This document shows positions 198 through 33,222 of a DNA stretch of 36,331 nt, in pieces (the stretch's first letter is position 1; each line of letters starts with the position of its first letter). The DNA is from Sedimentisphaerales bacterium (lineage in GTDB: Bacteria > Planctomycetota > Phycisphaerae > Sedimentisphaerales > SM23-30), in assembly GCA_028281535.1 (NCBI GenBank), contig JANQJS010000023.1, positions 1-36,331 of the forward strand, written 5' to 3'. The position numbers and the translations under genes were made by a program. A model generated the notes under the pieces. The model saw nothing but the letters and a program-made list of their open reading frames with translations, did not search any database and had not been told where the DNA came from.

Positions 198-236
198 AGC
201 TCTGTCAGAATACACACTAATTTTTCTGGCAGAGCT
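198..236 (+). terminator. Conserved unit-boundary hairpin, copy 1
   Basis: AGCTCTGTCAGAA pairs with TTCTGGCAGAGCT (one G-U), with a loop containing ACACAC and a T run. The same hairpin recurs at 11692-11731. It marks the junction between the end of an oxidase unit and the leader of the next A gene. No strong U tract follows the 3' arm, so termination is possible but not certain. Confidence 0.5.
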
Positions 237-329: not shown

Positions 330-518
330 TTGTGTGTATATAGGTCGATTCGATTTTCTTCTCAATTTTTATATGAAATTAACGTTCAAAATACGTGTGT
401 GTGTTTATGTTTTGGTAACTTTTGAAGGTGTGTTAACTTTCAAGAACCTCTACAAAATTGGTCCCTGTAACAATTTTGTGAGTGGAGAAAATGAACTTAC
501 AGGTCATGGAGAAAAATA
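330..518 (+). promoter_or_regulatory. Structured leader with pseudoknot upstream of protein A1
   Basis: This leader matches 11886-12073 in blocks and in length (189 versus 188 nt). The blocks, in order, are: TTGTGTGTATATAGGTCGA at 330-348; a 23-nt identical GTGTGTG...TTTTGGTA block at 395-417; a hairpin at 420-445 that uses two G-U pairs where the second copy has perfect pairs; and a stem CTCT/CAAAATTG (448-460) with CAATTTTG/GGAG (471-487). The stem loop carries CCTGTAA (464-470), complementary to TTACAGG (497-503), which gives an H-type pseudoknot. The 3' pseudoknot arm ends 4 nt before the GGAG ribosome binding site (508-511). Pairing is conserved through A-U to G-U changes. This suggests a riboswitch or protein-binding leader acting on translation. 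The ligand is unknown and no known class was recognised. Confidence 0.6.
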
Positions 519-2114
519 ATGAAAAAATTATTCACTCTTGTATTAAGTCTGCTATTAACGGCCTTTTTTGCCGTAGATACGCAGGCACAGCCGCGCGCGG
601 TAATCTTGAATGATTCGCCGGTTGTCTATTATGCATTTGAAGAAACCAGCGGCACAGTGGCTGTTGATTCCTCTGGTAATGGCAATGATGGTACCTATGT
701 CGGTACGACTTTGGGGGCAGATGGTGTTTCAGGTAATGGTGTGGAGCTACCTGTAGGTGCTGGAAGCTATGTAGAAGTACCTGATTTAGGTGAATGTTAT
801 GATTCATGGACACTTGAAATGTATATCACCTCGTTTGATGCTGTAGACCCAACATCTGGTTGCTGTACATCTCTTTTCTCAACAGACGCCTGTGGTGATG
901 ATGGTTGCAATCATATGAACTTTTTGCATGGTGAAGATAATGCAACAGAATCATCTGGTTCTCATGGTTTTATTTTAGCAGCAGCTGGTTTACCCGAACC
1001 TAGTGCATTGACAGAGCCTACTCATATCGCATTTGTTAATGATCTTGCTTCAGGAACAGGTCTTATTTATGTTAATGGTGTACTTGTGGAGACCGAAGGG
1101 ACTGTCGATGGCTGTGGATTTTTTGGTGCAGCTCGAATTGGTTCTTGGAGCGTAGAGAATCGCTATTTCCAAGGAACCATCGATGATTTTGCCATTTTTG
1201 ATTCAGCGCTTAGTGCAGAAATTATCTTGGCACACTATGAAGAGCTTGGTCCTCCAAGCATTTTGGTTGACCAAACAGCAACCGTTGATATTGCTGAATC
1301 ACACATTTCAATTCCAACATCGACGACGTTTACTGTAGCTCTTGCTGAAGATCCCAATTTAGGCACAGTCATTGTGACCTTAGATCCGAACAATAATGAT
1401 GGAGACTTTAGTGAACTTGATATTGATCTTGGCTTGGGGGCTGCTATTCCTATCACATTAACTTTTGACACGACTGATTGGGACTCGCCACAAATTGTAA
1501 CAATTACAGCCGTTAATGATAGCGATCCAGAAGAATGTTTTATTACAGCTGGAATTAATCTTTCTTCAACAATTGATGAGCCTAATGAAAATGATCTTTA
1601 TGTTGACGCGAAAGCAAAAGCGTCCGTGATTGTTTTAGATAATGAAACCGGTTGTGTCATTGTTGATGAAGGCGATGGTGTAACAATCGATGAATTGGAT
1701 CCTAATGGAACAATTGATTCTGTGACATATGTTCTAAATCGTGCTCCAAGTGGCAGTGATAATGTGATTACTTTGGAAGAACCTTTAGGTTTAGCTACAG
1801 TATCGCCTTTGTCATTAACCTTTAATTCAGGTAACTGGGCGATACCTCAAACCGTAAGTATAAAAGCTAATTTAGATGATGAACTTGTTGGTGAAGACCC
1901 TGTTGTTACAGGGAGTTCTTCTGGTGACAGTGACCCACAAGCGTTTAATCCTGTTGCAAACGTAAGCGTTGATTTAATTGAAGATGAATGTGGTGAGTTA
2001 CCATTTTCTGACAATGATTATAATCAAGATTGTCTCGTAAACTTATTGGATTTCTCACTATTCAGCGCAAGCTGGGGTAATTGTACTCAGCCAGATCCAG
2101 CAAACTGCCCATAA
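519..2114 (+). CDS. Secreted LamG protein with dockerin-like C-terminus (A1)
   Basis: 531 aa. A Sec signal peptide (about residues 1-23, MKKLFTLVLSLLLTAFFA then DTQA) is followed by a LamG/concanavalin-like domain (about 31-242, with YYAFEETSGT and DSSGNGNDGTYVG near its start). Two beta-sandwich repeats resembling Calx-beta or Ig-like modules follow, each ending in a W-x3-PQ-x-V/T pattern (near 319 and 439). The C-terminus is a single Ca-binding dockerin-like motif (about 497-520, DYNQDCLVNLLDF). No catalytic residues are evident, so a role in glycan binding or surface architecture is inferred. The ATG at 519 follows GGAG with 7 nt spacing. It precedes B1 by 163 bp and is paralogous to A2 (12074-13684) along its whole length. 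Confidence 0.85.
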   Translation: MKKLFTLVLSLLLTAFFAVDTQAQPRAVILNDSPVVYYAFEETSGTVAVDSSGNGNDGTYVGTTLGADGVSGNGVELPVGAGSYVEVPDLGECYDSWTLEMYITSFDAVDPTSGCCTSLFSTDACGDDGCNHMNFLHGEDNATESSGSHGFILAAAGLPEPSALTEPTHIAFVNDLASGTGLIYVNGVLVETEGTVDGCGFFGAARIGSWSVENRYFQGTIDDFAIFDSALSAEIILAHYEELGPPSILVDQTATVDIAESHISIPTSTTFTVALAEDPNLGTVIVTLDPNNNDGDFSELDIDLGLGAAIPITLTFDTTDWDSPQIVTITAVNDSDPEECFITAGINLSSTIDEPNENDLYVDAKAKASVIVLDNETGCVIVDEGDGVTIDELDPNGTIDSVTYVLNRAPSGSDNVITLEEPLGLATVSPLSLTFNSGNWAIPQTVSIKANLDDELVGEDPVVTGSSSGDSDPQAFNPVANVSVDLIEDECGELPFSDNDYNQDCLVNLLDFSLFSASWGNCTQPDPANCP

Positions 2115-2201
2115 GAGAATAATGGTTATTCATAGTATGTTTAGATTTAAACTGTTTAATAAATTGGATCATACTTAAGAATTTAAAATGATTCTCATTA
2201 T

Positions 2202-2245
2202 GGTTCACTGGTTTGTCGCGACAAAAGTTTAACCGTGATGAAACC
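2202..2245 (+). promoter_or_regulatory. Possible hairpin between A1 and B1
   Basis: TTTGT/ACAAA pair around a CGCG loop (2212-2225), with partly pairing flanks GGTTCAC and GTGATGAAACC. The A2-B2 spacer has a better hairpin at the equivalent position, and both follow a TATGGTTCA sequence. A role as an mRNA-processing or translation-balancing element is a guess. Confidence 0.3.
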
Positions 2246-2277
2246 AAGCAATTGTTTAATATATTGGAGAAAATAAC

Positions 2278-3720
2278 ATGAAAAAAATGATAACATTAGT
2301 ATTAGGTTTAGCGCTACTAGCGGGTGTTACACCTGTAGATGCAAATGATGAATTTGCACCTTCTTGGCGCAGCTTCCCAGGTGCGGTATCTGTGAAATTG
2401 GAGTTTGATGATCCTAATGATTTTAGTCTTAATTCAGTCTCAGGGGCTGATGCCGGCGCAGTCACTGTTTCTGTGCCTGGAGGACAAGAATATGGCGAAG
2501 CCGCATGTACTACCTCTTCTGGTGGCGTTGTTCACAGTGGCGCCAGTCGCGTGATTGTTACTAATTTGGCTGAACCAGGAGAAGGTCTTATTGTTCGTGC
2601 ACAATTGACCACTGATGCCAATCCATTAGAAGCGGACTTTGTTGGATTTGAAACCGCAACAGGTTTATTTGGTACTGAAGATTTTGAAGGATGTGCTATT
2701 CAAGAAGAATTGGCTGTTGTGGCGAGTCTTCCTGCTGGTGGTGGTCTTACGACACATTATTTTGAAGCCATCCTGACAGAGCCTGGAGAATGTAGTGACA
2801 TCCATTTCTTTGTGGAAGGTGCTGCAGACGTTTGTATTGATGAAGTGATTTTTGATATTCATCGTGGTATTAACCCTGGTCAAAAAGTGGTTGCAAACAT
2901 TGCGCCAACTTCTGCAGAAATCGTTGAAGGATCATCAACGACGATGGTCGTCTCACTAGATCCAAATCTTGGGCCAGTTGGGAGTGATGTGAATGTCCTC
3001 TTAGACCCTGATAATAGTGGAGTGGATATAACTTTTAATGGACTAAATCCACACACGCTTACTTTTACAAGTGGAAATTGGACGACACCTCAAACAGTCA
3101 CTGTTGCAGCAATTGATGATGGTAACTTTGAGCTTTGTTCTGAAGTGATTAATTTTCAAGCTCAAGTCACATCGTCGGTTACTTCATTCAATGGTGGGGC
3201 AGCTCAATCAGCATTAGCATTCACGATTAATGAGATTAATTCTGGTTGTGTTATTGCCACTGCTACAGCCGAACTTGAAGAAATTACTGGTGGTTCTACT
3301 GGAACTATTGAATATGTATTAAACCGTGTTCCATCTTCAGGTACGGTAACTGTCGATATTACAGATGGATTTGAAGATCCAAATGCTCCATTCTTTACGG
3401 CAGATCCCAATGTGATAACCTTCACAACTGGTAACTGGTCTGTGCCTCAGACTGTGACCTTGACCGCTATCCAAGATGATGAATTACGTGGCGACGGTGG
3501 AGGTGAATTAACCGAGACGACAGCAGTATCAACGGTTACAGCTGTTGGAGATATTTTCTTTACCGAGAACCCAGCTGCAATCCCTGTAACCATATCTGAA
3601 GATGAATGCGGTGCATTAGAATTCGATCAATTTGATCTTGATGAAAATTGTGCTGTAGATGTTGCAGATTTGTCTTCCTTGATTAGCGAATGGTTAACTT
3701 GTACAGAACCTGGTTGCTAG
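2278..3720 (+). CDS. Secreted protein with dockerin-like C-terminus (B1)
   Basis: 480 aa. A signal peptide (about 1-22, cleaved near VDA-ND) is followed by a conserved mature N-terminus NDEFAPSWR and about 180 residues of an unrecognised beta-rich, Cys-containing domain. Two Calx-beta/Ig-like repeats follow (W motifs near 265 and 385), then one dockerin-like motif (about 453-478, DLDENCAVDVADLSSLISEWL). It lacks the LamG domain of A1 but shares its repeat and C-terminal design, so the pair probably works together on the cell surface or outside the cell. The ATG follows TTGGAGAAAATAAC. The 163-bp spacing from A1 without a terminator suggests co-transcription. It is the full-length paralogue of B2. 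Confidence 0.82.
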   Translation: MKKMITLVLGLALLAGVTPVDANDEFAPSWRSFPGAVSVKLEFDDPNDFSLNSVSGADAGAVTVSVPGGQEYGEAACTTSSGGVVHSGASRVIVTNLAEPGEGLIVRAQLTTDANPLEADFVGFETATGLFGTEDFEGCAIQEELAVVASLPAGGGLTTHYFEAILTEPGECSDIHFFVEGAADVCIDEVIFDIHRGINPGQKVVANIAPTSAEIVEGSSTTMVVSLDPNLGPVGSDVNVLLDPDNSGVDITFNGLNPHTLTFTSGNWTTPQTVTVAAIDDGNFELCSEVINFQAQVTSSVTSFNGGAAQSALAFTINEINSGCVIATATAELEEITGGSTGTIEYVLNRVPSSGTVTVDITDGFEDPNAPFFTADPNVITFTTGNWSVPQTVTLTAIQDDELRGDGGGELTETTAVSTVTAVGDIFFTENPAAIPVTISEDECGALEFDQFDLDENCAVDVADLSSLISEWLTCTEPGC

Positions 3721-4061: not shown

Positions 4062-4115
4062 GATATGTAGATTTTGCTATGTATTATAGAAAGTGTGTAA
4101 AAATAAGGATTAGTG

Positions 4116-4649
4116 ATGTTGAAAGATCGTAAAGCCGACCAATTTTTTAATCTATTTATGAGCGAACAAAAGCGTATTTATACGTTTATTCTGACTTTAC
4201 TCCCCAATCAATTCGATGCGGATGACGTGATGCAGGAGACAGCCATTATTCTCTGGAATAAGTTTGATGAATTTGATCCCAATACCAACTTTTTGGCTTG
4301 GGCTTTAACGATTGCAAAATTTCAGGTTATGGGTTTTTGCAAAACCATTTCCAGAGATAAGTTGCAGTTTAATGGTCAAATGATAGATCGTATTGCTGAA
4401 AAAGTCACGCAACGTCATTCAACATTTGAAACTCGCCGTCAAACATTAAAAAAATGTATCGGTAAACTTAATCCAGAAGATCGTCATTTGATTCTTCTAA
4501 GGTATGAAAAAGGATTAACTATCAAGGAGGTCGCCAAGCAGGTTCAGCGTCCAATACATGGAATGTATAAAGCGATGTCGCGAATACACGAAGCATTACT
4601 GAATTGCGTTAATCTGAATGTTAAGATTGAGACGGTTCACCATGACTGA
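4116..4649 (+). CDS. ECF-type RNA polymerase sigma factor, unit 1
   Basis: 177 aa, the usual size of an ECF sigma factor of the Planctomycetes/Verrucomicrobia type. Region 2 is visible at about residues 17-70 (RIYTFILTLLPNQFDADDV and an MQET segment, then FLAWALTIAKFQV). Region 4 with a helix-turn-helix is at about 110-168 (LNPEDRHLILLRYEKGLTIKEVA and then a GMYKAMSRIHEAL recognition helix). I prefer ATG 4116 over the in-frame GTG at 4113 because AAGGA at 4105-4109 then has a 6-nt spacer. Its end overlaps the FecR-LamG gene by 8 nt, a typical sigma/anti-sigma arrangement. Target promoters are unknown; its own operon and the neighbouring oxidase are the obvious candidates. Confidence 0.9.
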   Translation: MLKDRKADQFFNLFMSEQKRIYTFILTLLPNQFDADDVMQETAIILWNKFDEFDPNTNFLAWALTIAKFQVMGFCKTISRDKLQFNGQMIDRIAEKVTQRHSTFETRRQTLKKCIGKLNPEDRHLILLRYEKGLTIKEVAKQVQRPIHGMYKAMSRIHEALLNCVNLNVKIETVHHD

Positions 4650-6420
4650 AGATAAAAAGTCAAAACTAACGCCTTTGATTCTTGCATCTCTGGAAGGTTC
4701 TGCAACACCGCAAGAGATTCAGTTGGTAAAACAGCAGCTGGAAAATGATCCACAGGCAATGGACTACTACATTGAATTAGTGGAAATGTACGCTAGTTTA
4801 AAACAGAGTGCATGTGATTTGGCAGAAACGGATCATGCATCTAAGGAGGCACGCGATTTACTTGTGGAAGCGATTGGCAATGACCAGTTGCGTGGTACAA
4901 TTGATCAAGCTTACCAAGAAGAGATTGAGCGAGAATATAACAAAAAAATTGCTGAATTACGCTTGAGTGAATATCTAGAGAATCAGCCAGCGGGTTCGGA
5001 TTTAGAAAACGTTGCTACCCGAAAGCGACAGAAAGCATTTTCTAAGACTTCATTTCGAAATACACGAAATCTATTTATTTCGATTGCGGCATGTTTGATT
5101 GTTGCGATTTCTCTCGTTTTTGTTTATCAGCCCAAAACATTGTCTGTCGTTGCTAAAGTTGTTGATAGTTATCAGGCTAAGTGGCTCGAGATGCCGTTAC
5201 GTGATAATGCAAAAATATCATTAGTGACAAAATCATATCACCTAATAAGTGGGTATGCAGAAATAGAATTTGATAAAGGAGCCAAGGTTATTCTTGAAGG
5301 GCCTGTAGAAATCAAGTTAGAGTCGGCTAATGGGGCTTATCTAAAACATGGAAAGCTTGTGGCGAAAGTTCCGCCACAAGCAACAGGCTTTACCGTTCAA
5401 ACTCCCAGCGCGGACTTTATTGATTTAGGCACAGAGTTTGGCCTGTCTGTGGATAATGATTCGAGTGTATTATCTGTTTTTGATGGAGCTGTTTCCGTAG
5501 CTTTACAGGCAGATCCTGTGAGGTCACAGCAAGTAATTCATGCCGGTCAAAATATTCGAACGGATTATGGGAAGTTGACTATTACGAATGTTGCATTAGA
5601 TAATTCATATGTTCGTTCTATGCCGACTGATCAATCAATCGAGTCCATTGATCAAGTGCCACAGCAAATAGACTGCCAAACGCCTAAATTGTATATTGCC
5701 TTTGAAAGTGCATCTGATTTAAAAAAGAAAAAAAATATTCACTGGCAAGGAAAAATTAAATTACAAAATTTGCCAGAGGAGCATCGATTAAATAACAAGG
5801 TTATTCAGTTCGATGGCCTGAAAAATTTTCTTTCTGTTAAGGATAATTCCTGGGATCATGAACCACAAGAATGGCGTAAAGGGCATAGTTGGAGTGTTTG
5901 GGTTAAACCAGATACTCTCAAAGAACAATGTGTTTTTAAGGCGATCAATAATGAAAGTGATGATCTTCTCAATAATTTAAATAATGAGGATTACAATTCA
6001 TTTCAGTCACTTTGCATTACTTACAATGACAATAATGAAGCTGTTTTTAGTTATGTATATACGACATATATTCAAGAACTATCTGAAAAAGTATATGAGT
6101 ATCCAATGATATCAGCCCCATTGGGTGAAGAGCCAGCCTGGTATCATGTTGCCGCAACGATGAGTAAGGATCGTGTTCGTTTTTATATGAATGGTCGTTT
6201 GGTAAAAGAACAAGTTGTTCAGAAGGGGCATAATATCTCAGGGGATCAAAGTGATCCTATGTATTTTGGACGTACATTATACCCGATTAACAGTTTGTAT
6301 GGTAAAAAGCGATTTAAACGATTCAAAGGTAGCATGGATGAAATTATGCTGTTTGATTGTGAATTAACCGAAAAAGATATTTCTGAAATTTATTTAAATT
6401 ATCAAATTAATCAAAAATAA
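4642..6420 (+). CDS. FecR-LamG membrane regulator (putative anti-sigma), unit 1
   Basis: 592 aa. The cytoplasmic N-terminus (about 1-140) has the LILASLEGSATPQEIQLVKQ pattern of anti-sigma partners. It is followed by one membrane helix (about 143-163, LFISIAACLIVAISLVFVY), a FecR domain (about 205-300, including AEIEFDKGAKVILEGP, SANGAYL and DLGTEFGLSV) and a C-terminal LamG domain (about 347-590, with RFYMNGRLV and FKGSMDEIMLFD). This fits an inner-membrane protein with its sensing LamG domain outside the cytoplasm, possibly binding a polysaccharide (inferred). I chose ATG 4642 rather than 4618 because the regulators in units 3 and 4 also start exactly over the sigma stop codon. Confidence 0.88.
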   Translation: MTEDKKSKLTPLILASLEGSATPQEIQLVKQQLENDPQAMDYYIELVEMYASLKQSACDLAETDHASKEARDLLVEAIGNDQLRGTIDQAYQEEIEREYNKKIAELRLSEYLENQPAGSDLENVATRKRQKAFSKTSFRNTRNLFISIAACLIVAISLVFVYQPKTLSVVAKVVDSYQAKWLEMPLRDNAKISLVTKSYHLISGYAEIEFDKGAKVILEGPVEIKLESANGAYLKHGKLVAKVPPQATGFTVQTPSADFIDLGTEFGLSVDNDSSVLSVFDGAVSVALQADPVRSQQVIHAGQNIRTDYGKLTITNVALDNSYVRSMPTDQSIESIDQVPQQIDCQTPKLYIAFESASDLKKKKNIHWQGKIKLQNLPEEHRLNNKVIQFDGLKNFLSVKDNSWDHEPQEWRKGHSWSVWVKPDTLKEQCVFKAINNESDDLLNNLNNEDYNSFQSLCITYNDNNEAVFSYVYTTYIQELSEKVYEYPMISAPLGEEPAWYHVAATMSKDRVRFYMNGRLVKEQVVQKGHNISGDQSDPMYFGRTLYPINSLYGKKRFKRFKGSMDEIMLFDCELTEKDISEIYLNYQINQK

Positions 6421-6437
6421 TATATGAGAGATTTAGT

Positions 6438-6476
6438 GGGTGAGTCATGTGTACTTGCAGGTTCAATGACTCACCC
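6438..6476 (+). promoter_or_regulatory. GGGTGAGTCAT stem-loop upstream of CRO1
   Basis: An 11-bp perfect inverted repeat (6438-6448 with 6466-6476) around a 17-nt loop. It lies 17 nt after the FecR-LamG stop and is repeated before CRO2 and CRO3 with the same arm sequence. There is no U tract after it, so it is not a simple terminator. Confidence 0.65.
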
Positions 6477-6501
6477 GATGACTCAATGATAGGATATTTC
6501 T

Positions 6502-6546
6502 AACCCATAATGAGTAGTACCATTCTACACTCCTCTTTCCTGGGTT
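6502..6546 (+). promoter_or_regulatory. Conserved leader element E, copy 1
   Basis: The outer helix AACCCA/TGGGTT encloses 33 nt containing a GTAG/CTAC hairpin and the motif ACCATTCTAC (6519-6528), then CTCTTTCC. In copy 2 the outer helix is TACCCCG/CGGGGTA around an equally long interior with ACCATTCTA at the same position. That is covariation typical of structured RNA. It ends 99 nt before the CRO1 start. It could be a riboswitch-like or protein-binding leader. Transcription through it from the FecR gene is required if it acts as RNA. Confidence 0.6.
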
Positions 6547-6645
6547 TCAAGTCTCCTTTCACTATAAAACGTGTGTAATTGGCTGGAGAGCCAATGTTTT
6601 GTGTGTGTGTTGTCTTTTTAACATATTTTTTAAAGGAAGTTGAGT

Positions 6646-11691: not shown

Positions 11692-11731
11692 AGCTCTGTC
11701 AGAAACACACTAGTTTTTTTCTGGCAGAGCT
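11692..11731 (+). terminator. Conserved unit-boundary hairpin, copy 2
   Basis: AGCTCTGTCAGAA/TTCTGGCAGAGCT with an ACACAC-containing loop, the same as at 198-236. It is followed by ATTTTAT. It marks the boundary between units 1 and 2. Confidence 0.5.
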
Positions 11732-11885: not shown

Positions 11886-12073
11886 TTGTGTGTATGTAGG
11901 TCGAATGGGTTCCTTTCTTATCCCTTATTACAAAAAAATTATTAAAAATGTGTGTGTGTTTATGTTTTGGTACATCTTGATGATGTGTTGATCATCAAGA
12001 TCCTCTGCAGAGTTGGTCCCTGTAACAATTTTGCGAGCGGAGAAAATGAATTTACAGGACATGGAGAATTATA
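11886..12073 (+). promoter_or_regulatory. Structured leader with pseudoknot upstream of protein A2
   Basis: Second copy of the A leader. It has the TTGTGTGTATGTAGGTCGA block (11886-11904), the 23-nt identical GT-rich block (11950-11972) and an 11-bp perfect hairpin ATCTTGATGAT/ATCATCAAGAT (11974-12001). The stem CTCT-CAGAGTTG (12003-12015) pairs with CAATTTTG-GGAG (12026-12042). Loop CCTGTAA (12019-12025) pairs with TTACAGG (12052-12058). GGAG (12063-12066) is the ribosome binding site. Differences from copy 1 preserve pairing. The 11732-11885 stretch before it has no gene. Confidence 0.6.
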
Positions 12074-13684
12074 ATGAAAAAAATATTAGCAGTGATGTTT
12101 AGCCTGGTACTGGTTGCATCTGTTGCAACGCAGGTTCAGGCGCAACCTCGGTCAGTTATATTAAATGACGGGCCATTGGTCTACTATGCCTTTGAAGAAA
12201 CCAGTGGCACGACTGCAGTCGATTCATCTGGTAACGGATTTGATGGTACCTATGTTAATGCAACATTGGGTGCTACAGGTGCTTTTGGTGGTAATGCTGT
12301 TACTTTAGGTGATGGTGCTTCTGCATATATAGCCGTGCCTGATTTAGATGTATGTGCTGATGCCTATACGATCGAGATCATCCTGACGGATTTTGTCGCA
12401 ACTGAAGAATTCGGATCACTTTATTCTACAAATGAATGCGATGATGCTGCATGTGTTCACTGGAATATCACCCCTGGCAATAATGGTGCAGAACTAGCCG
12501 GTATAGGTAATGAAGTCATTGCGAACAGCGGGGTTCCTGCTCCTGGGGAAGTGACCGAACCTGTTCACATTGCATTTGTTGTTGATGGCATAAATGGCGT
12601 TGCTTCAGTCTATGTTGGTGGGGTTAAGGTTGACGATGTTGATATTATCGCGATTGGTGCAGATTGTGATAGTTTCATTGACGCAGCAATTGGTGCATGG
12701 CTAGTTCCAGATGCATCAGCAGAACGATTTGTAGCTGGAACGATCGATGATTTTGCAATTTTTGATAGTGCCTTGAGTGAACAACGTATTCAGGCGCACG
12801 CGTTTAATATTGAACCCGTTATTAGTGTTGATCAGTCTGCAACAGAAGAAATTTCTGAGTCTCATCCTACGAATCCAACAAGTACCACTTTTTCAGTTTC
12901 ATTAATTGGTGGTAACCCAAATATTAATTTGGAAGTTCTTGTTGATCCAAACACACCTGGTGATGATGGAAGTGATGTTGATTTGGGTCAAGGAGCTGGT
13001 AATTCTCAAGTATTGACATTTACCCCAACAGATTGGCATTTACCGCAAAATGTTACTGTGGCCGCAGTCAATGATGGTGATCCAGAAGATTGCAAAGAAA
13101 CGGTGGGCTTTGTTATTTCAGTTATTGATCCCAATAATGGCAGTCTTGAGCCAAACTACCAAGCACCTAACTTAACAGGTAGTGCACAGGTCATTGTCAT
13201 TGATAATGATACTGGTTGTACTTTTGTTGAAGGTGAGGGTATTGAAATCGAAGAAGCCGATCCCATTGGAACAGCTGGTTCGATTACATATGTCTTGAAC
13301 CGGGCACCAGCTGGTGGGGATAATGTAATTAGCTTAACCGAAACGTCTACTCTGGCTACGATTAGTCCTGATTCATTGACATTCACTGGTACTAACTGGC
13401 ATACACCACAAACTGTTACGATTACTGCAGTTTCAGATGGCATTTTCAACGATGCTGAACCGACTGTGACTGGCCAATCTTCAGGTGATGTTACGCCAGC
13501 AGATCCAAATGCATTTAATCCTGTTGCAACTGTTGAAGTGACATTGATTGAAGATGAATGTGGCGAACTGCCATTCTTGAGTAGTGATTTTAATGCTGAC
13601 TGTGTTGTTAACCTGCTTGATTTCTCATTATTCAGCGGTGAATGGGGCGCATGCTCTCACTCTGATGGTGTGAGTTGTCCATAA
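12074..13684 (+). CDS. Secreted LamG protein with dockerin-like C-terminus (A2)
   Basis: 536 aa, collinear with A1: signal peptide (about 1-24, ending VQA), then the LamG-like domain with YYAFEETSGTTAVDSSGNGF (about 31-245). Two Calx-beta/Ig-like repeats follow, with W-x3-PQ motifs near 319 and 440, and a dockerin-like end with DFNADCVVNLLDF near 503. Conserved Cys residues in the LamG domain (CDDAAC) match those of A1. It has the same leader and the same 7-nt ribosome-binding-site spacing as A1. The start codon is fixed by the signal peptide and by alignment to A1. It is probably a surface or matrix glycan-binding component duplicated with the unit. No enzymatic motif was seen. Confidence 0.85.
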   Translation: MKKILAVMFSLVLVASVATQVQAQPRSVILNDGPLVYYAFEETSGTTAVDSSGNGFDGTYVNATLGATGAFGGNAVTLGDGASAYIAVPDLDVCADAYTIEIILTDFVATEEFGSLYSTNECDDAACVHWNITPGNNGAELAGIGNEVIANSGVPAPGEVTEPVHIAFVVDGINGVASVYVGGVKVDDVDIIAIGADCDSFIDAAIGAWLVPDASAERFVAGTIDDFAIFDSALSEQRIQAHAFNIEPVISVDQSATEEISESHPTNPTSTTFSVSLIGGNPNINLEVLVDPNTPGDDGSDVDLGQGAGNSQVLTFTPTDWHLPQNVTVAAVNDGDPEDCKETVGFVISVIDPNNGSLEPNYQAPNLTGSAQVIVIDNDTGCTFVEGEGIEIEEADPIGTAGSITYVLNRAPAGGDNVISLTETSTLATISPDSLTFTGTNWHTPQTVTITAVSDGIFNDAEPTVTGQSSGDVTPADPNAFNPVATVEVTLIEDECGELPFLSSDFNADCVVNLLDFSLFSGEWGACSHSDGVSCP

Positions 13685-13780
13685 GAGATTTAATATCGTA
13701 ATTTGAAATGATAATTAAATGTTAATTTAATTGAATCATAATAGTGAGATATGAATAACAAATCTCGATATGGTTCAAAG

Positions 13781-13812
13781 TCTCAAGTTAAGGTTTACAA
13801 ACCATCTTGAGA
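13781..13812 (+). promoter_or_regulatory. Hairpin between A2 and B2
   Basis: TCTCAAG and CTTGAGA pair, with an inner GGTTT/AAACC. The 3' arm ends 28 nt before the B2 start. There is no U tract. It may be an intra-operon processing or translation element. Confidence 0.4.
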
Positions 13813-13840
13813 TCAATATTGATAATTGGAGATTAATATA

Positions 13841-15986: not shown

Positions 15987-16024
15987 GGTGAGTCAAAGGT
16001 TACTTGGCAGTGCATTGACTCACC
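15987..16024 (+). promoter_or_regulatory. GGTGAGTCA stem-loop upstream of CRO2
   Basis: A 9-bp perfect inverted repeat, GGTGAGTCA with TGACTCACC, matching the stem-loops before CRO1 and CRO3. It is retained although the FecR gene that precedes it in the other units is gone, so it belongs to the oxidase gene. Confidence 0.62.
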
Positions 16025-16045
16025 TCAGTTCAAACAGGATAAAAC

Positions 16046-16092
16046 TACCCCGTGTGAATAATCACCATTCTAACGCACCTATCTTCGGGGTA
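16046..16092 (+). promoter_or_regulatory. Conserved leader element E, copy 2
   Basis: TACCCCG (16046-16052) pairs with CGGGGTA (16086-16092) around 33 nt, the same interior length as copy 1, with ACCATTCTA at 16064-16072. The helix sequence differs from copies 1 and 3 while pairing is kept. A GTGTGTG tract follows at about 16160 and the start codon is 111 nt downstream. Confidence 0.6.
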
Positions 16093-16203
16093 CAAGTTCC
16101 AATTTACAAAGGCGGTTTCCGTCTATCTACCTCTTTTGCGTAAAAGTGATAAGTGTGATCGTGTGTGTTAATGATAATTTATATTAATTGAAAGGAAGTA
16201 AGT

Positions 16204-21993: not shown

Positions 21994-22554
21994 ATGAACA
22001 AAAGTAATCAAATATCTAATGAACTAAATCCCTTAAATGTGAATGAGCAATTCGCCTGTTTATTGCTCAACAACCAAAAACGCATTTATGGGTTTATCCT
22101 GACCCTGGTTCCTAATATGTCAGACGCAGATGATTTGATGCAGGAAACAGTCATGGTCATGTGTCGCCGGTTTGATGAATTTGACCAGGAGGCTAGTTTT
22201 GCTGCGTGGGGGATGGGGATTGCTTACAACAAAGTTCTAAAATTCCGACAAAAGCAAAGTCGTTCTAAATTAACATTTAGTGAAAAATCAATGGATCAGA
22301 TCATTAAATCTTCAAATGACTCTCTTGATATTTTAGAAGATTATTCGCAGGCGTTAAATAATTGCCTTCAGAAATTAAATGAACATGATCGTAAATTGAT
22401 ACGGATGCGTTATAAGAATTCTGAAAAAATAAAGACGATTGCTCAGGATTTAAATCGCTCTGTACAAGGTATGTATAAAGTGTTTGCTCGTATCCATAAC
22501 ACGCTAAGACTTTGTGTAGACCGAACACTGACTCAAAAAAAGGGGGTGTCATGA
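21994..22554 (+). CDS. ECF-type RNA polymerase sigma factor, unit 3
   Basis: 186 aa. Region 2 has RIYGFILTLVPNMSDADDLM plus an MQET segment and FAAWGMGIAYNKVLKF. Region 4 has LNEHDRKLIRMRYKNSEKI and GMYKVFARIHNTL. It is paralogous to the sigma factors of units 1 and 4 and looks closer to that of unit 4 (both have GFIL-LVPN-SDADD). It overlaps the next gene by ATGA. The ribosome binding site is weak: there is no clear Shine-Dalgarno in AAATGTGTGATGA, and an out-of-frame GTG-ATG pair lies just upstream, so low basal translation is possible. Confidence 0.88.
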   Translation: MNKSNQISNELNPLNVNEQFACLLLNNQKRIYGFILTLVPNMSDADDLMQETVMVMCRRFDEFDQEASFAAWGMGIAYNKVLKFRQKQSRSKLTFSEKSMDQIIKSSNDSLDILEDYSQALNNCLQKLNEHDRKLIRMRYKNSEKIKTIAQDLNRSVQGMYKVFARIHNTLRLCVDRTLTQKKGVS

Positions 22555-24290
22555 GTCAGATTGATCCATTACAATTGAGCCAGATGATTCTTGAATCTCT
22601 GGACGGTACCATTTCTCCAAGCGACTTTGAACGACTTGATCAATTGATACAAAATGAACCAGACGTCGCACAACTTTACGTTAAACTAATGAATTCGCAT
22701 ATAATATTTAGTCAACAAGGGTTAGCCAGTCGAATTTATTCTACTGATGAACAGATTGATACAGACAATGAAACCGAAGATCTGCTTAGAGATATGATTG
22801 AAAAAGAAGAATATCTTGTCGGAATCAAAGAAGATGAGATGTCTGCACGGCACAAGGAATTAGTCAAGTCTAAGGCGCAAAAACAACTCGCAGAATTTCT
22901 AAGTCACCAATCCAGTCATGAAGTCAGAAGCTCTGAACCTGCCAAAATACAAAGGGAAAAAACAAGCCAATCCAAAAAAATATTATGGGCTATGGCCGCT
23001 TGCCTTTTAATGAGTGTGTTTATCTGGCTTTTTTATCCTTCAAGAGATGCAAAGTCCGTTTCAAAATTAATAAATACATTCAATACCCAATGGCCATATC
23101 AAGCCAGTATTTTTAAAATTCATGAAATTTATAATCTGCCCAAAGGTTTGGCGGAAATCGAGTTTGATAGTGGGGCTAAAATCATTCTCGAAGGACCGGC
23201 GGAGATTAAAATGAATTCGGCTAATGGGGCCTATTTAAATCTTGGTAAACTTGTGGCGCACGTTCCTCCGCGTGCCCAAGGTTTTACGATTAAAACACCT
23301 AACGCAAAATTTGTAGACCTGGGGACAGAATTTGGTGTATCAGTAGAGGGTCGTTCTAGTACCTTATCTGTTTTTAAAGGTCAAGTAGCTGTTGTGATGC
23401 CAGACAGTGGTTTCCAAGATAAACATGTGATTCAATCTGGTCAGCATGTTATTGCAAAGAATAATGAAGTAGTGATTAGCGATAAACCACAAAGTATTCA
23501 ATTTGTACGCGCTATACCAACTGCTAATGATTCGGCAGATCAGAAAATCAAATCATCGCGTTCTGAATGTGTAACTCCTGCTCTCTACATTAATCATGAT
23601 ATATTAAAAGAAAACAAGTATTCACAAATTAATTGGAGAGGTCCGAAGCATTTAGATGAACAAACGATTCGGTTTGATGGTAAATATAATCAGCTTCTGT
23701 TGCGAAATATAAAAGTAAATGAGTCTGAAACTAAATTTTGGCGTGATGGATATTCCTGGAGTTTCTGGTTCAAGCCCGACCTGATTAAAGAGCTATGTTT
23801 ATTTAAGGTGATTACTCGAGAGCATTCTGATCTTGAGAGTAATAAAGACTATCATCATGATGATGATCAACTGCATTGGCTATCCATAAAGTTGAATAAG
23901 AGTAATCAACCGGTGATTAGTTACATATTTAATTCTCATGTGGAATATGACTCTGCCAAAAATCGTGAACATGAAATCGTTACACCCGCCTTGTCATCTC
24001 ATCAAGAATGGATTCATGTTGCTGCTTCTTATTATTTAGATCGCGTACGGCTATATATGAATGGGCAGTTGGTCAAAGATTATCAAATACCTGATGGTCA
24101 TGATATCTTTGGCGATGATACTGACTCGTTTATTTTTGGTCGTACACTAAATTCAAAATTAGGAAAACTCAAAGGTAAGAAATTTATGCGATTCAAAGGA
24201 AGTATGGATGATATGCTATTTTATGAATGTGACCTAACCTCTCAAGATATCTTTGATATCTATACGAAACAAAAAAGATATAAAAAGTGA
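22551..24290 (+). CDS. FecR-LamG membrane regulator (putative anti-sigma), unit 3
   Basis: 579 aa. The cytoplasmic anti-sigma-like segment (QMILESLDGTISPSDFERLDQ) is followed by a membrane helix (about 145-163, LWAMAACLLMSVFIWLFY), a FecR domain (about 197-285 with AEIEFDSGAKIILEGP, SANGAYLNLGKL and DLGTEFGVSV) and a LamG domain (about 340-575, with RLYMNGQLV and FKGSMDDMLFYECDL). Start ATG 22551 overlaps the sigma stop as ATGA and has AGGGGG as ribosome binding site; the in-frame ATG at 22512 is inside the sigma gene. The oxidase CRO3 lies 201 bp downstream with no terminator between, so read-through into it is possible. Confidence 0.88.
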   Translation: MSQIDPLQLSQMILESLDGTISPSDFERLDQLIQNEPDVAQLYVKLMNSHIIFSQQGLASRIYSTDEQIDTDNETEDLLRDMIEKEEYLVGIKEDEMSARHKELVKSKAQKQLAEFLSHQSSHEVRSSEPAKIQREKTSQSKKILWAMAACLLMSVFIWLFYPSRDAKSVSKLINTFNTQWPYQASIFKIHEIYNLPKGLAEIEFDSGAKIILEGPAEIKMNSANGAYLNLGKLVAHVPPRAQGFTIKTPNAKFVDLGTEFGVSVEGRSSTLSVFKGQVAVVMPDSGFQDKHVIQSGQHVIAKNNEVVISDKPQSIQFVRAIPTANDSADQKIKSSRSECVTPALYINHDILKENKYSQINWRGPKHLDEQTIRFDGKYNQLLLRNIKVNESETKFWRDGYSWSFWFKPDLIKELCLFKVITREHSDLESNKDYHHDDDQLHWLSIKLNKSNQPVISYIFNSHVEYDSAKNREHEIVTPALSSHQEWIHVAASYYLDRVRLYMNGQLVKDYQIPDGHDIFGDDTDSFIFGRTLNSKLGKLKGKKFMRFKGSMDDMLFYECDLTSQDIFDIYTKQKRYKK

Positions 24291-24295
24291 TTTAA

Positions 24296-24340
24296 TTGGG
24301 TGAGTCATGCGAATCTGGCATGATCTGATGACTCACCCAA
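24296..24340 (+). promoter_or_regulatory. TTGGGTGAGTCAT stem-loop upstream of CRO3
   Basis: A 13-bp perfect inverted repeat (24296-24308 with 24328-24340), the strongest of the three copies. It begins 5 nt after the FecR-LamG stop codon. No U tract follows. Confidence 0.65.
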
Positions 24341-24353
24341 AGCTTAAGTTTAG

Positions 24354-24413
24354 GCTATTGCTAACCCAAACCAGTAGAACCATTCTACTCTATTTCCCTA
24401 GTTTTAGCAATAG
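24354..24413 (+). promoter_or_regulatory. Conserved leader element E, copy 3
   Basis: The outer helix CTATTGCTAA/TTAGCAATAG has 10 perfect pairs. Inside it are an AGTAG/CTACT hairpin with ACCATTCTAC (24379-24388) and CTATTTCC. Sequence inside matches copy 1 (CTAACCCA, AGTAG, ACCATTCTAC), but the closing helix has a different sequence. A long GT-rich tract (about 24430-24454) follows. Confidence 0.6.
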
Positions 24414-24491
24414 GCTTATAGCTTATTCTGTTGTGTTGTGTGTGTATGTGTGAAGTGGATTTATAACCAACATTTTGAAAGGAAGTAGAGT

Positions 24492-30351: not shown

Positions 30352-30558
30352 ATACAAAAGTCTGCATTAAAAGAAAAAGGAGCTTATCGCGACATAAATG
30401 GTTATCCTATCAGTAATTGCCTTGACTTCCAAACGCTGGCTCGTTAAATTATTCATTCTTAGCTGCTCTAAGCAGCATGAGGGTGAGAGATAACTCATAT
30501 TATATAGTGTCAAAAATAACCACTAATGATGTGAGAAAAAATCACCTTTGTTCATAAA

Positions 30559-30601
30559 GGCCCATAGCTCAGTTGGTTAGAGCAGGGGACTCATAATCCC
30601 C
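30559..30601 (+). pseudogene. Truncated tRNA-Met (CAT) 5' fragment
   Basis: GGCCCAT (5' acceptor strand), GCTC...GAGC (D arm with AGTTGGTTA loop) and GGGGA-CTCATAA-TCCCC (complete anticodon arm, anticodon CAT at 30592-30594) are all present. The variable loop, T arm and 3' acceptor strand are missing; the next bases are CAAAATCCCACC. A functional tRNA cannot form. A tRNA cut at the anticodon arm is the typical footprint of a tyrosine-recombinase attachment site. The following 100 bp (including GGTAG direct repeats at about 30675-30690) could be attachment-arm sequence, but no integrase lies in the window. Confidence 0.8.
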
Positions 30602-30716
30602 CAAAATCCCACCTAAATTAAGCACTTACAATCGCTTAAATCCCTTCTAATGTGTTTTATTGACGTTTAATTACGGTAGTTTCCTGGTAGACAAATTTTT
30701 TATATTTCTATCATGT

Positions 30717-30859: not shown

Positions 30860-31405
30860 GTGTCTGAAGAACGAAACCCTGAGTCAAATAAGACCGATGA
30901 TGAGTTTACTTATCTATTACTAACGCATCAGCGTCGTTTGTATGGATTTATTCTCTCACTGGTACCTAATTTTTCAGATGCGGATGATATATTCCAAGAT
31001 ACTGTATTGGTGATGTCGCACAATTTTCATGATTTAAGTGACAAGAATAATTTCCTTTATTGGGGGTTTGGAATTGCCCGCCATAAAATCATTAAATTTC
31101 GCCAAAAGGCGACGAAATCCCCTATCCATTTTAGTGGAGATGCCTTTGATGCAATTGTTGGTGAATCCGTGCAGACATTGGACCACTTGGATGAGCGAAC
31201 CAGTGCACTTGAAAAATGCATGTCGAAACTGACTGGCAGTGATAAAGCATTGCTTAAAATGCGATATGAAAAAGGTCTTAAAATCAATCGTATTGCAGAA
31301 AAAGTCAATCGACCTGTACAGGGGATGTATAAAGTGTTTGTCAGAATTCATCTCGGATTACGTGAATGTGTAAAACGTACATTGTCGATGGGAGATGCCA
31401 CATGA
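30860..31405 (+). CDS. ECF-type RNA polymerase sigma factor, unit 4
   Basis: 181 aa from a GTG start (GTG TCT GAA), preceded by GAAGAAAGCGAG. Region 2 has RLYGFILSLVPNFSDADDIF plus a QDTV segment and FLYWGFGIARHKIIKF. Region 4 has LTGSDKALLKMRYEKGLKI and GMYKVFVRIHLGL. It overlaps the following FecR-LamG gene by ATGA. It is separated from unit 3 by a terminator and a tRNA fragment. Its downstream partner is a HAF-repeat protein, not an oxidase, so its regulon may differ. Confidence 0.88.
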   Translation: MSEERNPESNKTDDEFTYLLLTHQRRLYGFILSLVPNFSDADDIFQDTVLVMSHNFHDLSDKNNFLYWGFGIARHKIIKFRQKATKSPIHFSGDAFDAIVGESVQTLDHLDERTSALEKCMSKLTGSDKALLKMRYEKGLKINRIAEKVNRPVQGMYKVFVRIHLGLRECVKRTLSMGDAT

Positions 31406-33222
31406 TACCTGAATTTCATCATGAAGATCAACAATTATGTGCCTTATTACTTGAGTCATTGAATGGCAATATCTCATTCGATCAATTTCAAGACTTAGAG
31501 CAGCTGTTAATTTCTAAGCCAGAATATATGAAACTCTATTTGGATCTTATTTCCATTCATACCGTTCTTAGTCAGCAGGGATTGTCAAATTTTAAATCTT
31601 ATCAGCAAACAAAAGTACCGGGTTCTGAGGAATTATTACGTGAATATATTGATATGGATAAGGAGCTTTTAGACCGGCAACAGAAAAAAATTGAAAACAT
31701 CGACCGACAAAAAATAGAAAAAGCAGCTCAAGAAAGTCTTGAGGAATATCTAGGGCAACAAAAGAAATCTGAGTCTGATCCAGCACGATTTGTGTCGAGG
31801 GAAAAAAAATTAGCGACGAATCTAAACAAGCTACCTGGATTTATTAGAGCCATGGCAGCATGTCTGATCATCGCAGGATGTATATGGATCTATTTTCAAT
31901 CCGGCAGAGTACAAAATATTGCAAATGTTACGAATCAACATAATGCTCAATGGCAGGTTGAACCGTTCGCGTCATTGAAAAATAAAGAGTACATTTTAAA
32001 AAGTGGAATGGTGGATATCCAATTTTATGATGGGGCTAGGATTACGCTCGAAGGACCTGCTGAGATTACGTTTGAGTCGGCTAATGGGGCCTATTTAAGA
32101 CAAGGTAAACTCACAGCCCATGTGCCGAAAAGAACCGTTGGATTTACCATTCATACGCCTTCGGCAACATATATTGATCGTAGTACCGATTTTTCCGTTG
32201 AGGTCCAGCCTAATGGTGCGAGTGAATTGCATGTCCATAGTGGAAAAGTGGACATCATTATACTGGACAAATTCTTCGATAACATCCTGACTGGTCAGGC
32301 ACGGTCTGTTTCATCTGATGGTTATTCCATTGACGAGATCGAATATCGCAATGAGACTTCCTTTATGTCAAATGTCTTGACTGAATCCACGATGGAGCCT
32401 GATGCATCCAGTGAAGATTCTGATGAACCCATTGTTGAATTGAATCAATCAATACCAACCTCTATTGATCAAAGTAAATATGAAAAATTAATCATGGCAC
32501 ACCAACCTATTTGCTATTATCAATTTAATTCTCAGATTGATCATCCTGATGAAAATTATCTGGTATTTGAAAATATTAATTTAATTTCGGATGAGTCACT
32601 ACCAATGTGGGACAGTTCTAATAAGGTTCTTCGTTTAGATTATAGCACAAACAATGTTTTAGGTCTCAAGTGCATTCAAGAAAATAAAATGACTGAAGGT
32701 ACAATCATGTTATGGTTCAGAATAGACCATTTACCTAAACATAACAGGTTTCTTGACGTCATGTCAACCTACTCCATTGTAAAAAACCAAATGTCGATTT
32801 CAGAATTTACCTATCCTCGCGATGCTTCGAGCTTGGAGATTACCAGTGAAATAAGCATTGATTCTTACGGCACCTTGGAATTGAGATATAGTCGTGAGTA
32901 TATCGATGATACAGTAGATAATCGTGTCCTTAATAGCCAAAAATCGATTCAGGCTCAGCAATGGAATTATGTCGCTTTGACATATGATCGAGACAAAATC
33001 CTGACACTTTATATCAATGGTTCGAAACATGATGCCATGAAGATCACCAGACAGTTTCATGATAACCCATGGTTGTTTACTTTTTTCGGCATATATTTTG
33101 ATGCAGGAGTGGTATCTCCTAACGTTTCATTCAAAGGTGCTGTAGATGATCTTGCCATATTTGATCATGCAATGTCCGCAGAACAAATTGAGCAGCTTTA
33201 CAATATGGCGATCATGAAATGA
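31402..33222 (+). CDS. FecR-LamG membrane regulator (putative anti-sigma), unit 4
   Basis: 606 aa. The anti-sigma-like N-terminus (ALLLESLNGNISFDQFQDLEQ) is followed by a membrane helix (about 147-163, AMAACLIIAGCIWIYF), a FecR domain (about 210-300) and a LamG-like domain (about 367-600, with ICYYQFNS, LYINGSKHD and FKGAVDDLAIFD). The usual FecR sequence DLGTEFGVSV is here DRSTDFSVEV, and an acidic linker (ESTMEPDASSEDSDEP) replaces the shorter linker of the paralogues. The LamG domain is also divergent, so the sensed ligand probably differs. I chose ATG 31402 because of the ATGA overlap; the in-frame ATG at 31366 lies within the sigma gene. Confidence 0.86.
   Translation: MIPEFHHEDQQLCALLLESLNGNISFDQFQDLEQLLISKPEYMKLYLDLISIHTVLSQQGLSNFKSYQQTKVPGSEELLREYIDMDKELLDRQQKKIENIDRQKIEKAAQESLEEYLGQQKKSESDPARFVSREKKLATNLNKLPGFIRAMAACLIIAGCIWIYFQSGRVQNIANVTNQHNAQWQVEPFASLKNKEYILKSGMVDIQFYDGARITLEGPAEITFESANGAYLRQGKLTAHVPKRTVGFTIHTPSATYIDRSTDFSVEVQPNGASELHVHSGKVDIIILDKFFDNILTGQARSVSSDGYSIDEIEYRNETSFMSNVLTESTMEPDASSEDSDEPIVELNQSIPTSIDQSKYEKLIMAHQPICYYQFNSQIDHPDENYLVFENINLISDESLPMWDSSNKVLRLDYSTNNVLGLKCIQENKMTEGTIMLWFRIDHLPKHNRFLDVMSTYSIVKNQMSISEFTYPRDASSLEITSEISIDSYGTLELRYSREYIDDTVDNRVLNSQKSIQAQQWNYVALTYDRDKILTLYINGSKHDAMKITRQFHDNPWLFTFFGIYFDAGVVSPNVSFKGAVDDLAIFDHAMSAEQIEQLYNMAIMK

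What the first reader, a model, noticed from the sequence alone, without database searches (positions are those of the whole stretch)
330..518. Repeated leader with H-type pseudoknot at the ribosome binding site of protein A genes
Two copies (330-518 and 11886-12073) precede A1 and A2. Both form a hairpin, then a stem whose loop CCTGTAA pairs with TTACAGG a few bases before the GGAG ribosome binding site. Changes between copies keep pairing: CAAAATTG becomes CAGAGTTG opposite an unchanged CAATTTTG, and the upstream hairpin goes from G-U-containing to perfect. This is what a translation-controlling riboswitch or autoregulatory leader looks like, and it matches no class I recognise.
Basis: partly seen in the sequence, partly recalled or inferred. 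Interest (0 to 1): 0.75.

Follow-up and report, generated by a model that had tools for sequence, protein, structure and literature searches.

The report
Thirteen-copy RNA leader of secreted-protein operons
A planctomycete carries thirteen related copies of a folded RNA leader, each ending in a likely knot beside the ribosome-binding site of secreted-protein genes; it matches no known RNA family and turned up in no other genome searched, and what it senses or binds is unknown.

Summary
The leader has 13 copies in this one genome, not two. Twelve stand before the first gene (A) and one before the second gene (B) of a two-gene secreted-protein operon that occurs 12 times. All 12 operons found have it; one solo A-like and one solo B-like gene do not. 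Hairpins P1 and P2 show real compensatory change (covariation 0.39 vs 0.20 shuffled; 0 of 400 tree-based null simulations reach the observed values for either). The loop CCUGUAA and its partner UUACAGG, 4 bases before GGAG, are almost invariant, so the pseudoknot is likely but rests on conservation and geometry, not covariation. A further covarying hairpin (H0) lies about 200 bases upstream. Nothing in Rfam matches. Covariance models found no convincing copy in about 300 genomes of the class, 391 of the phylum, 39 nearest relatives, or 56 loci encoding LamG-type relatives. Best reading: a lineage-restricted cis-acting mRNA leader acting at translation initiation, probably through an H-type pseudoknot. 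A ligand-binding riboswitch is possible but unsupported: no ligand, no demonstrated second state, one species only. Self-regulation by the products is unlikely because they are secreted.

The parts
198..236 (+). H0 hairpin before A1; loop holds ACACACTA; 13-pair stem
   Evidence: Stem covariation 0.313 vs 0.182 shuffled over 13 H0 sequences. The loop/stem pattern occurs 12 times in the genome, control 0: ten in front of A genes, plus an extra copy at C2:50653 and one before a giant gene at C65:15575.
330..347 (+). Box 1 (TTGTGTGTATATAGGTCG); partly complementary to the H0 loop
   Evidence: Present in most copies, absent in C65. Pairing with the H0 loop is a suggestion only: variants of box 1 break pairs rather than compensate.
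395..412 (+). Box 2: GTGTGTGTG followed by TTTATGTTT; invariant core
   Evidence: Alignment of 12 copies. (GT)nG is a general oriented element before secreted-protein genes in this genome.
419..446 (+). Hairpin P1
   Evidence: 12 pairs, 9 with changes on both sides, 83% of cells paired; 0 of 400 null simulations reach it.
448..482 (+). Hairpin P2 (CUC:GAG base, variable stem, conserved UUG:CAA top; loop GUCCCUGUAA)
   Evidence: 7 of 12 pairs with changes on both sides, 90% paired; 0 of 400 simulations.
464..470 (+). Pseudoknot helix S2, 5' strand CCUGUAA
   Evidence: Near-invariant; only A-to-G changes on this strand.
483..496 (+). A-rich linker UGGAGAAAAUGAAC, loop L3 of the pseudoknot
   Evidence: Read from sequence; GAGNGGAGAAAA in most copies.
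497..503 (+). Pseudoknot helix S2, 3' strand UUACAGG
   Evidence: 97% of cells paired over 13 copies, five pairs invariant; whole pattern found exactly 13 times in the genome, control 0.
508..511 (+). GGAG ribosome-binding site of A1 (start codon 519)
   Evidence: Sequence; CATGGAG invariant in the 12 A-gene copies.
519..2114 (+). Gene A1: secreted protein with Laminin_G_3 domain, dockerin-like C-terminus
   Evidence: Pfam PF13385 E 2.7e-13; dockerin-like end read from sequence.
2278..3720 (+). Gene B1, second gene of the A-B operon
   Evidence: ORF; B follows A in all 12 operons.
11692..11731 (+). H0 hairpin before A2
   Evidence: As for copy 1.
11886..11903 (+). Box 1 before A2
   Evidence: Sequence.
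11950..11967 (+). Box 2 before A2
   Evidence: Sequence and alignment.
11974..12001 (+). Hairpin P1 before A2
12003..12037 (+). Hairpin P2 before A2
12019..12025 (+). CCUGUAA, pseudoknot 5' strand
12052..12058 (+). UUACAGG, pseudoknot 3' strand
12063..12066 (+). GGAG ribosome-binding site of A2 (start codon 12074)
   Evidence: Sequence.
12074..13684 (+). Gene A2
   Evidence: Pfam PF13385 E 3.2e-09.

Best explanation
This is a family of 13 paralogous cis-acting mRNA leaders, found in one species only, that acts on translation initiation of the first gene of a repeated A-B secreted-protein operon. Shown: homologous copies in front of every A-B operon found, covarying P1, P2 and H0, near-invariant loop and partner strand. 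Inferred: P2 and the loop-partner helix form a classical H-type pseudoknot (S1 = P2, S2 = 7 pairs, L1 = 3 bases, L2 = 0, A-rich L3 of about 14 bases) whose last strand ends 4 bases before GGAG. Formation of the knot changes how the 30S subunit reaches the start site, and a cytoplasmic factor that binds P1, the loop or the knot sets how often it forms. Direction (repression or activation) and factor are unknown. The confidence given is for translation-level cis control through the knot; a simple switch that hides GGAG in box 2 is not supported.
For: 13 copies by covariance model and by pattern, control 0. Covariation of P1 and P2, of H0, and of P2 with the 13th copy, where an otherwise invariant U-A becomes C-G. 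The core is 72% identical between copies against 46% for the adjacent spacer and 39% for the encoded proteins, so the RNA is held by selection. The knot sits at a fixed distance from GGAG. The 13th copy has lost box 2 and P1 but keeps P2 and both knot strands. The solo A-like gene (C60:173312) and solo B-like gene (C2:187214) have no copy. No intrinsic terminator in either window leader, which speaks against transcription attenuation. Pseudoknots at ribosome-binding sites that control translation are known, for example rpsO/S15 and alpha mRNA/S4 (PMC10931766).
Against: The knot helix shows no covariation: it is nearly invariant and the tree-based test is uninformative (p 0.245 and 1.0). Three of the 12 aligned copies have only 5 or 6 contiguous Watson-Crick pairs instead of 7. 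No alternative state is supported: closing of GGAG by box 2 is no better than with shuffled box 2 (mean unpaired 0.41 vs 0.46). No expression data; transcript start unknown.
Confidence: 0.58

Rival explanations
1. A constitutive structural leader: the hairpins and knot protect the mRNA from decay or act as a ribosome standby or enhancer for highly expressed secreted proteins, without regulation. It works by fixed structure, with no ligand or factor.
For: No second state found. The same operon in 12 copies suggests high or constant demand. B genes carry a simpler hairpin with the same GAGNGGAGAAAA. Ribosomal protein S1 binds pseudoknots (PMC10931766).
Against: Near-invariant loop and box sequences exceed what a mere stabiliser needs.
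Confidence: 0.22
2. A metabolite or ion riboswitch: the conserved loop and box 2 form a pocket and ligand binding locks the pseudoknot against the ribosome-binding site.
For: Architecture like small translational riboswitches with RBS pseudoknots; conserved unpaired bases next to covarying stems.
Against: Absent from about 300 class genomes, 391 phylum genomes and 39 relatives; controls one gene type only, none metabolic; no Rfam similarity.
Confidence: 0.09
3. A target of a trans-acting small RNA or RNA-binding protein dedicated to these operons; the conserved sequences are the binding site and the knot may not form.
For: Sequence conservation of loop, partner and box 2 without covariation of the knot; the leader spans two protein types, so the regulator is not the product.
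Against: No candidate regulator identified; not searched for in depth. Complementarity of the two conserved strands would be a coincidence.
Confidence: 0.07
4. A DNA-level element: the hairpins are recombination or cassette boundaries that spread the operon, and have no role in RNA.
For: H0 is duplicated around about 480 bases at C2 and occurs twice at C65; the operon is a repeated cassette.
Against: Always sense-oriented and fixed to the start codon; knot at constant distance from GGAG; copies are old, not recent (mean protein identity about 39%).
Confidence: 0.04

Closest known systems
E. coli and mycobacterial rpsO leader (ribosomal protein S15 autoregulation)
   Same: Pseudoknot at or just upstream of the ribosome-binding site, acting at translation initiation (PMC10931766)
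   Different: Repressor is the cytoplasmic product itself; here the products are secreted
E. coli alpha operon leader (S4 entrapment)
   Same: Pseudoknot at the first cistron's ribosome-binding site controls an operon (PMC10931766)
   Different: Complex knot that contains the ribosome-binding site itself; here a simple H-type knot ends 4 bases before GGAG
T4/T2 gene 32 leader pseudoknot
   Same: Coaxial H-type knot in a 5' leader, translational control (PMC3014915)
   Different: Knot lies 67 bases upstream of the start and nucleates cooperative binding of its own product
preQ1, SAM-II and similar RBS pseudoknot riboswitches (own knowledge)
   Same: H-type knot tied to the ribosome-binding site
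   Different: Those are widespread, metabolic and bind a ligand; no Rfam match here
Rhodopirellula-1 candidate motif (PMC2864571)
   Same: Candidate cis-regulatory RNA reported from Planctomycetes and Proteobacteria

Membership tests
Any Rfam 15 family | Covariance-model match at gathering score | tested here: not met
   0 matches in the whole window; none up to E 5 for copy 1; only two chance-level hits for the C2 leader, far below gathering scores
Structured cis-acting leader RNA | Compensatory changes across homologues | tested here: met
   P1, P2, H0
Structured cis-acting leader RNA | Constant position before the same genes | tested here: met
   12 of 12 A-B operons, one further copy before a B gene
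H-type pseudoknot | Loop of a hairpin pairs with a downstream strand, with feasible loop lengths | tested here: met
   S2 97% paired over 13 copies; L1 3, L2 0, L3 about 14 bases, read from sequence
H-type pseudoknot | Covariation of the second helix | tested here: inconclusive
   Five of seven pairs invariant, the rest vary only to G-U or mismatch
Riboswitch | Specific ligand binding | not testable with these tools
   Needs in-line probing or similar
Riboswitch | Two alternative states that open or close the ribosome-binding site | tested here: inconclusive
   Box 2 pairing with CAUGGA predicted in 8 of 12 but no more closing than with shuffled box 2
Transcription attenuator | Intrinsic terminator in the leader | tested here: not met
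   None in either window copy
Autoregulatory leader | Product can bind its own mRNA in the cytoplasm | not testable with these tools
   Products begin with Sec-type signal peptides (read from sequence), which makes it unlikely

The most novel reading that the evidence does not exclude
A new, species-restricted class of translational switch in which one shared cytoplasmic signal (small molecule, small RNA or dedicated RNA-binding protein) sets, through 13 pseudoknots at ribosome-binding sites at once, the output of a paralogous array of secreted proteins, with simpler knotless versions of the same hairpin in front of at least six of the B genes.
Probability: 0.15. Interest if true: 0.75.

Novelty: new variant of a known kind. 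Interest (0 to 1): 0.52.

Why it matters
Structured RNA families are usually found because they recur in many species. This one was found only as 13 paralogues inside one genome, so methods that need many genomes would miss it, yet the paralogues alone give enough covariation to support the structure. If it regulates, it would be an RNA regulon for secreted proteins in a planctomycete, and a ready natural set of 13 variants for testing a pseudoknot at a ribosome-binding site.

Tried and rejected
Rfam at gathering and relaxed thresholds: nothing. Model R1 in class, relatives and 56 loci of LamG relatives: nothing outside this genome. Shorter model R2 in phylum: three hits at E 0.006-0.024 with 22-24 bits over 391 genomes, as expected by chance; in relatives only weaker ones. 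Exact pattern in GTDB contigs and viral contigs, blastn in plasmids: none. SD-hiding helix box 2:CAUGGA: predicted in 8 of 12 but no better than shuffled box 2, rejected as evidence. Short upstream ORF starting in TTTATG: lengths range from 3 codons to over 20 and no SD lies in front, rejected by reading. Box 1:H0-loop pairing: complementary by 6-10 bases but variants break pairs, left as a suggestion. Intrinsic terminator: none.

Full report
OBSERVATION. A blastn search of the window's own genome (4.44 Mb, 67 contigs) gave 12 copies, a covariance model 13, and a pattern of the knot alone, CCTGTR-18 to 48-TACAGG-2 to 6-GGAG, exactly the same 13 with none in the reversed control.

ANATOMY. From 5' to 3': hairpin H0 with loop ACACACTA; a purine-rich stretch with GGAGAA repeats; box 1 (GTGTGTATAGGTCG type); a variable spacer; box 2 (GTGTGTGTG, TTTATGTT); hairpin P1; hairpin P2 with loop GUYCCUGUAA; GAGNGGAGAAAA linker; UUACAGG; NCAU; GGAG; start codon. 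H0 and box 1 are missing in some copies (no H0 in C53b, no box 1 in C65). P2, both knot strands and GGAG are in all 13; the 13th copy, before a B gene at C65:8138-8283, lacks box 2 and P1.

STRUCTURE TESTS. Over 12 copies, P1+P2+knot: 89.0% of cells paired vs 78.9% shuffled, covariation 0.393 vs 0.200, 0 of 500 shuffles as high, and 0.065-0.127 when slid. Because paralogues share ancestry, I also simulated each column independently on the inferred tree with its observed number of changes: P1 163 double-change sequence pairs vs mean 39 (max 93), P2 127 vs 26 (max 64), neither reached in 400 runs; the knot helix is uninformative, being nearly invariant. H0: covariation 0.313 vs 0.182. The 13th copy replaces the otherwise invariant UUG:CAA by UCG:CGG, keeping pairs. 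The knot therefore rests on joint near-invariance, changes that mostly keep G-U pairing, geometry and retention in the 13th copy. Single-copy complementarity alone has chance about 0.1 with G-U, about 0.005-0.012 for 7 Watson-Crick pairs.

CONTEXT. Each full copy precedes gene A of an A-B pair; 12 of 12 such pairs found have it, while a solo A-like and a solo B-like gene do not. Most pairs follow a giant gene with galactose-oxidase-like, Kelch and cupredoxin-type domains, several with an ECF sigma/FecR pair further upstream; C6 and C53b do not. A exists in two N-terminal types (LamG type and another), yet leaders cross that divide: C9 and C27 leaders are 79% identical while the proteins are 26%. 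So the leader belongs to the operon position, not to one protein. B genes carry a simpler related hairpin without the knot: model R2 gives six weak hits (E 0.002-0.28) exactly at B ribosome-binding sites.

SELECTION. Mean pairwise identity is 71.7% in the leader core, 46.3% in the spacer beside it, 39.1% in the proteins. The copies are old and the core has been kept.

DISTRIBUTION. No hit with R1 in 297 other class genomes or 39 relatives including 12 of the same family, none in 56 loci encoding LamG relatives; R2 gave only chance-level hits in 391 other phylum genomes and in relatives. Caveats: first-look filters lose weak matches, the family members held are mostly incomplete, and no second genome of the genus appeared among the searched relatives.

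MECHANISM. Terminators are absent, so control at transcription is unlikely; the knot ends 4 bases before GGAG, so the natural target is the 30S subunit. Shown: structured RNA under selection at the ribosome-binding site. Inferred: the knot and its effect on initiation. Unknown: direction, effector, transcript start. The simple scheme in which box 2 hides GGAG is not supported. Secretion of A and B argues against autoregulation.

COMPARISON. The working principle resembles rpsO/S15, alpha/S4 and T4 gene 32 leaders (PMC10931766; PMC3014915). Membership in any Rfam family was tested and not met. Rhodopirellula-1 (PMC2864571) has no Rfam number in that table and could not be compared.

VERDICT. 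Real, structured, new as a family, of a known general kind; function inferred.

Noticed in passing
window 198-236 and 11692-11731; same in other copies: H0 hairpin loop ACACACTA is complementary to box 1 TAGTGTGT downstream: a possible second knot, or a DNA inverted repeat.
   Followed up: partly
window 6601-6609, 16161-16167, 24438-24444 and many loci: (GT)nG runs sit in sense orientation mostly 31-56 bases before giant-gene ORFs and about 113-124 before A genes: a general leader or start-site element for secreted proteins in this genome; a similar run lies before a gene in relative G235 (L108).
   Followed up: partly
window 2115-2277 and 13685-13837; B leaders elsewhere: A-B intergenic regions carry their own hairpins; at least six (in other operons) are weak homologues of P2 plus GAGNGGAGAAAA without the knot.
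   Followed up: partly
L010 1635-1684 and 2117-2166: Two nearly identical H0 hairpins flank about 480 bases between a giant gene and its A-B operon, as if a segment had been inserted or duplicated at H0.
   Followed up: no
window 6433-6645, 15990-16203, 24297-24491: Giant genes have another recurring leader: a GGTGAGTCA...TGACTCACC hairpin and an ACCATTCTA motif.
   Followed up: no
window 30558-30602: Sequence like the 5' half of a tRNA with CAT anticodon and no 3' half; ARAGORN calls no tRNA in the window. Possibly an integration scar.
   Followed up: partly
window 4113-6420, 21994-24290 and 30860-33222: ECF sigma and FecR-LamG pairs recur three times; each of the first two is followed by a giant galactose-oxidase-like gene.
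   Followed up: no
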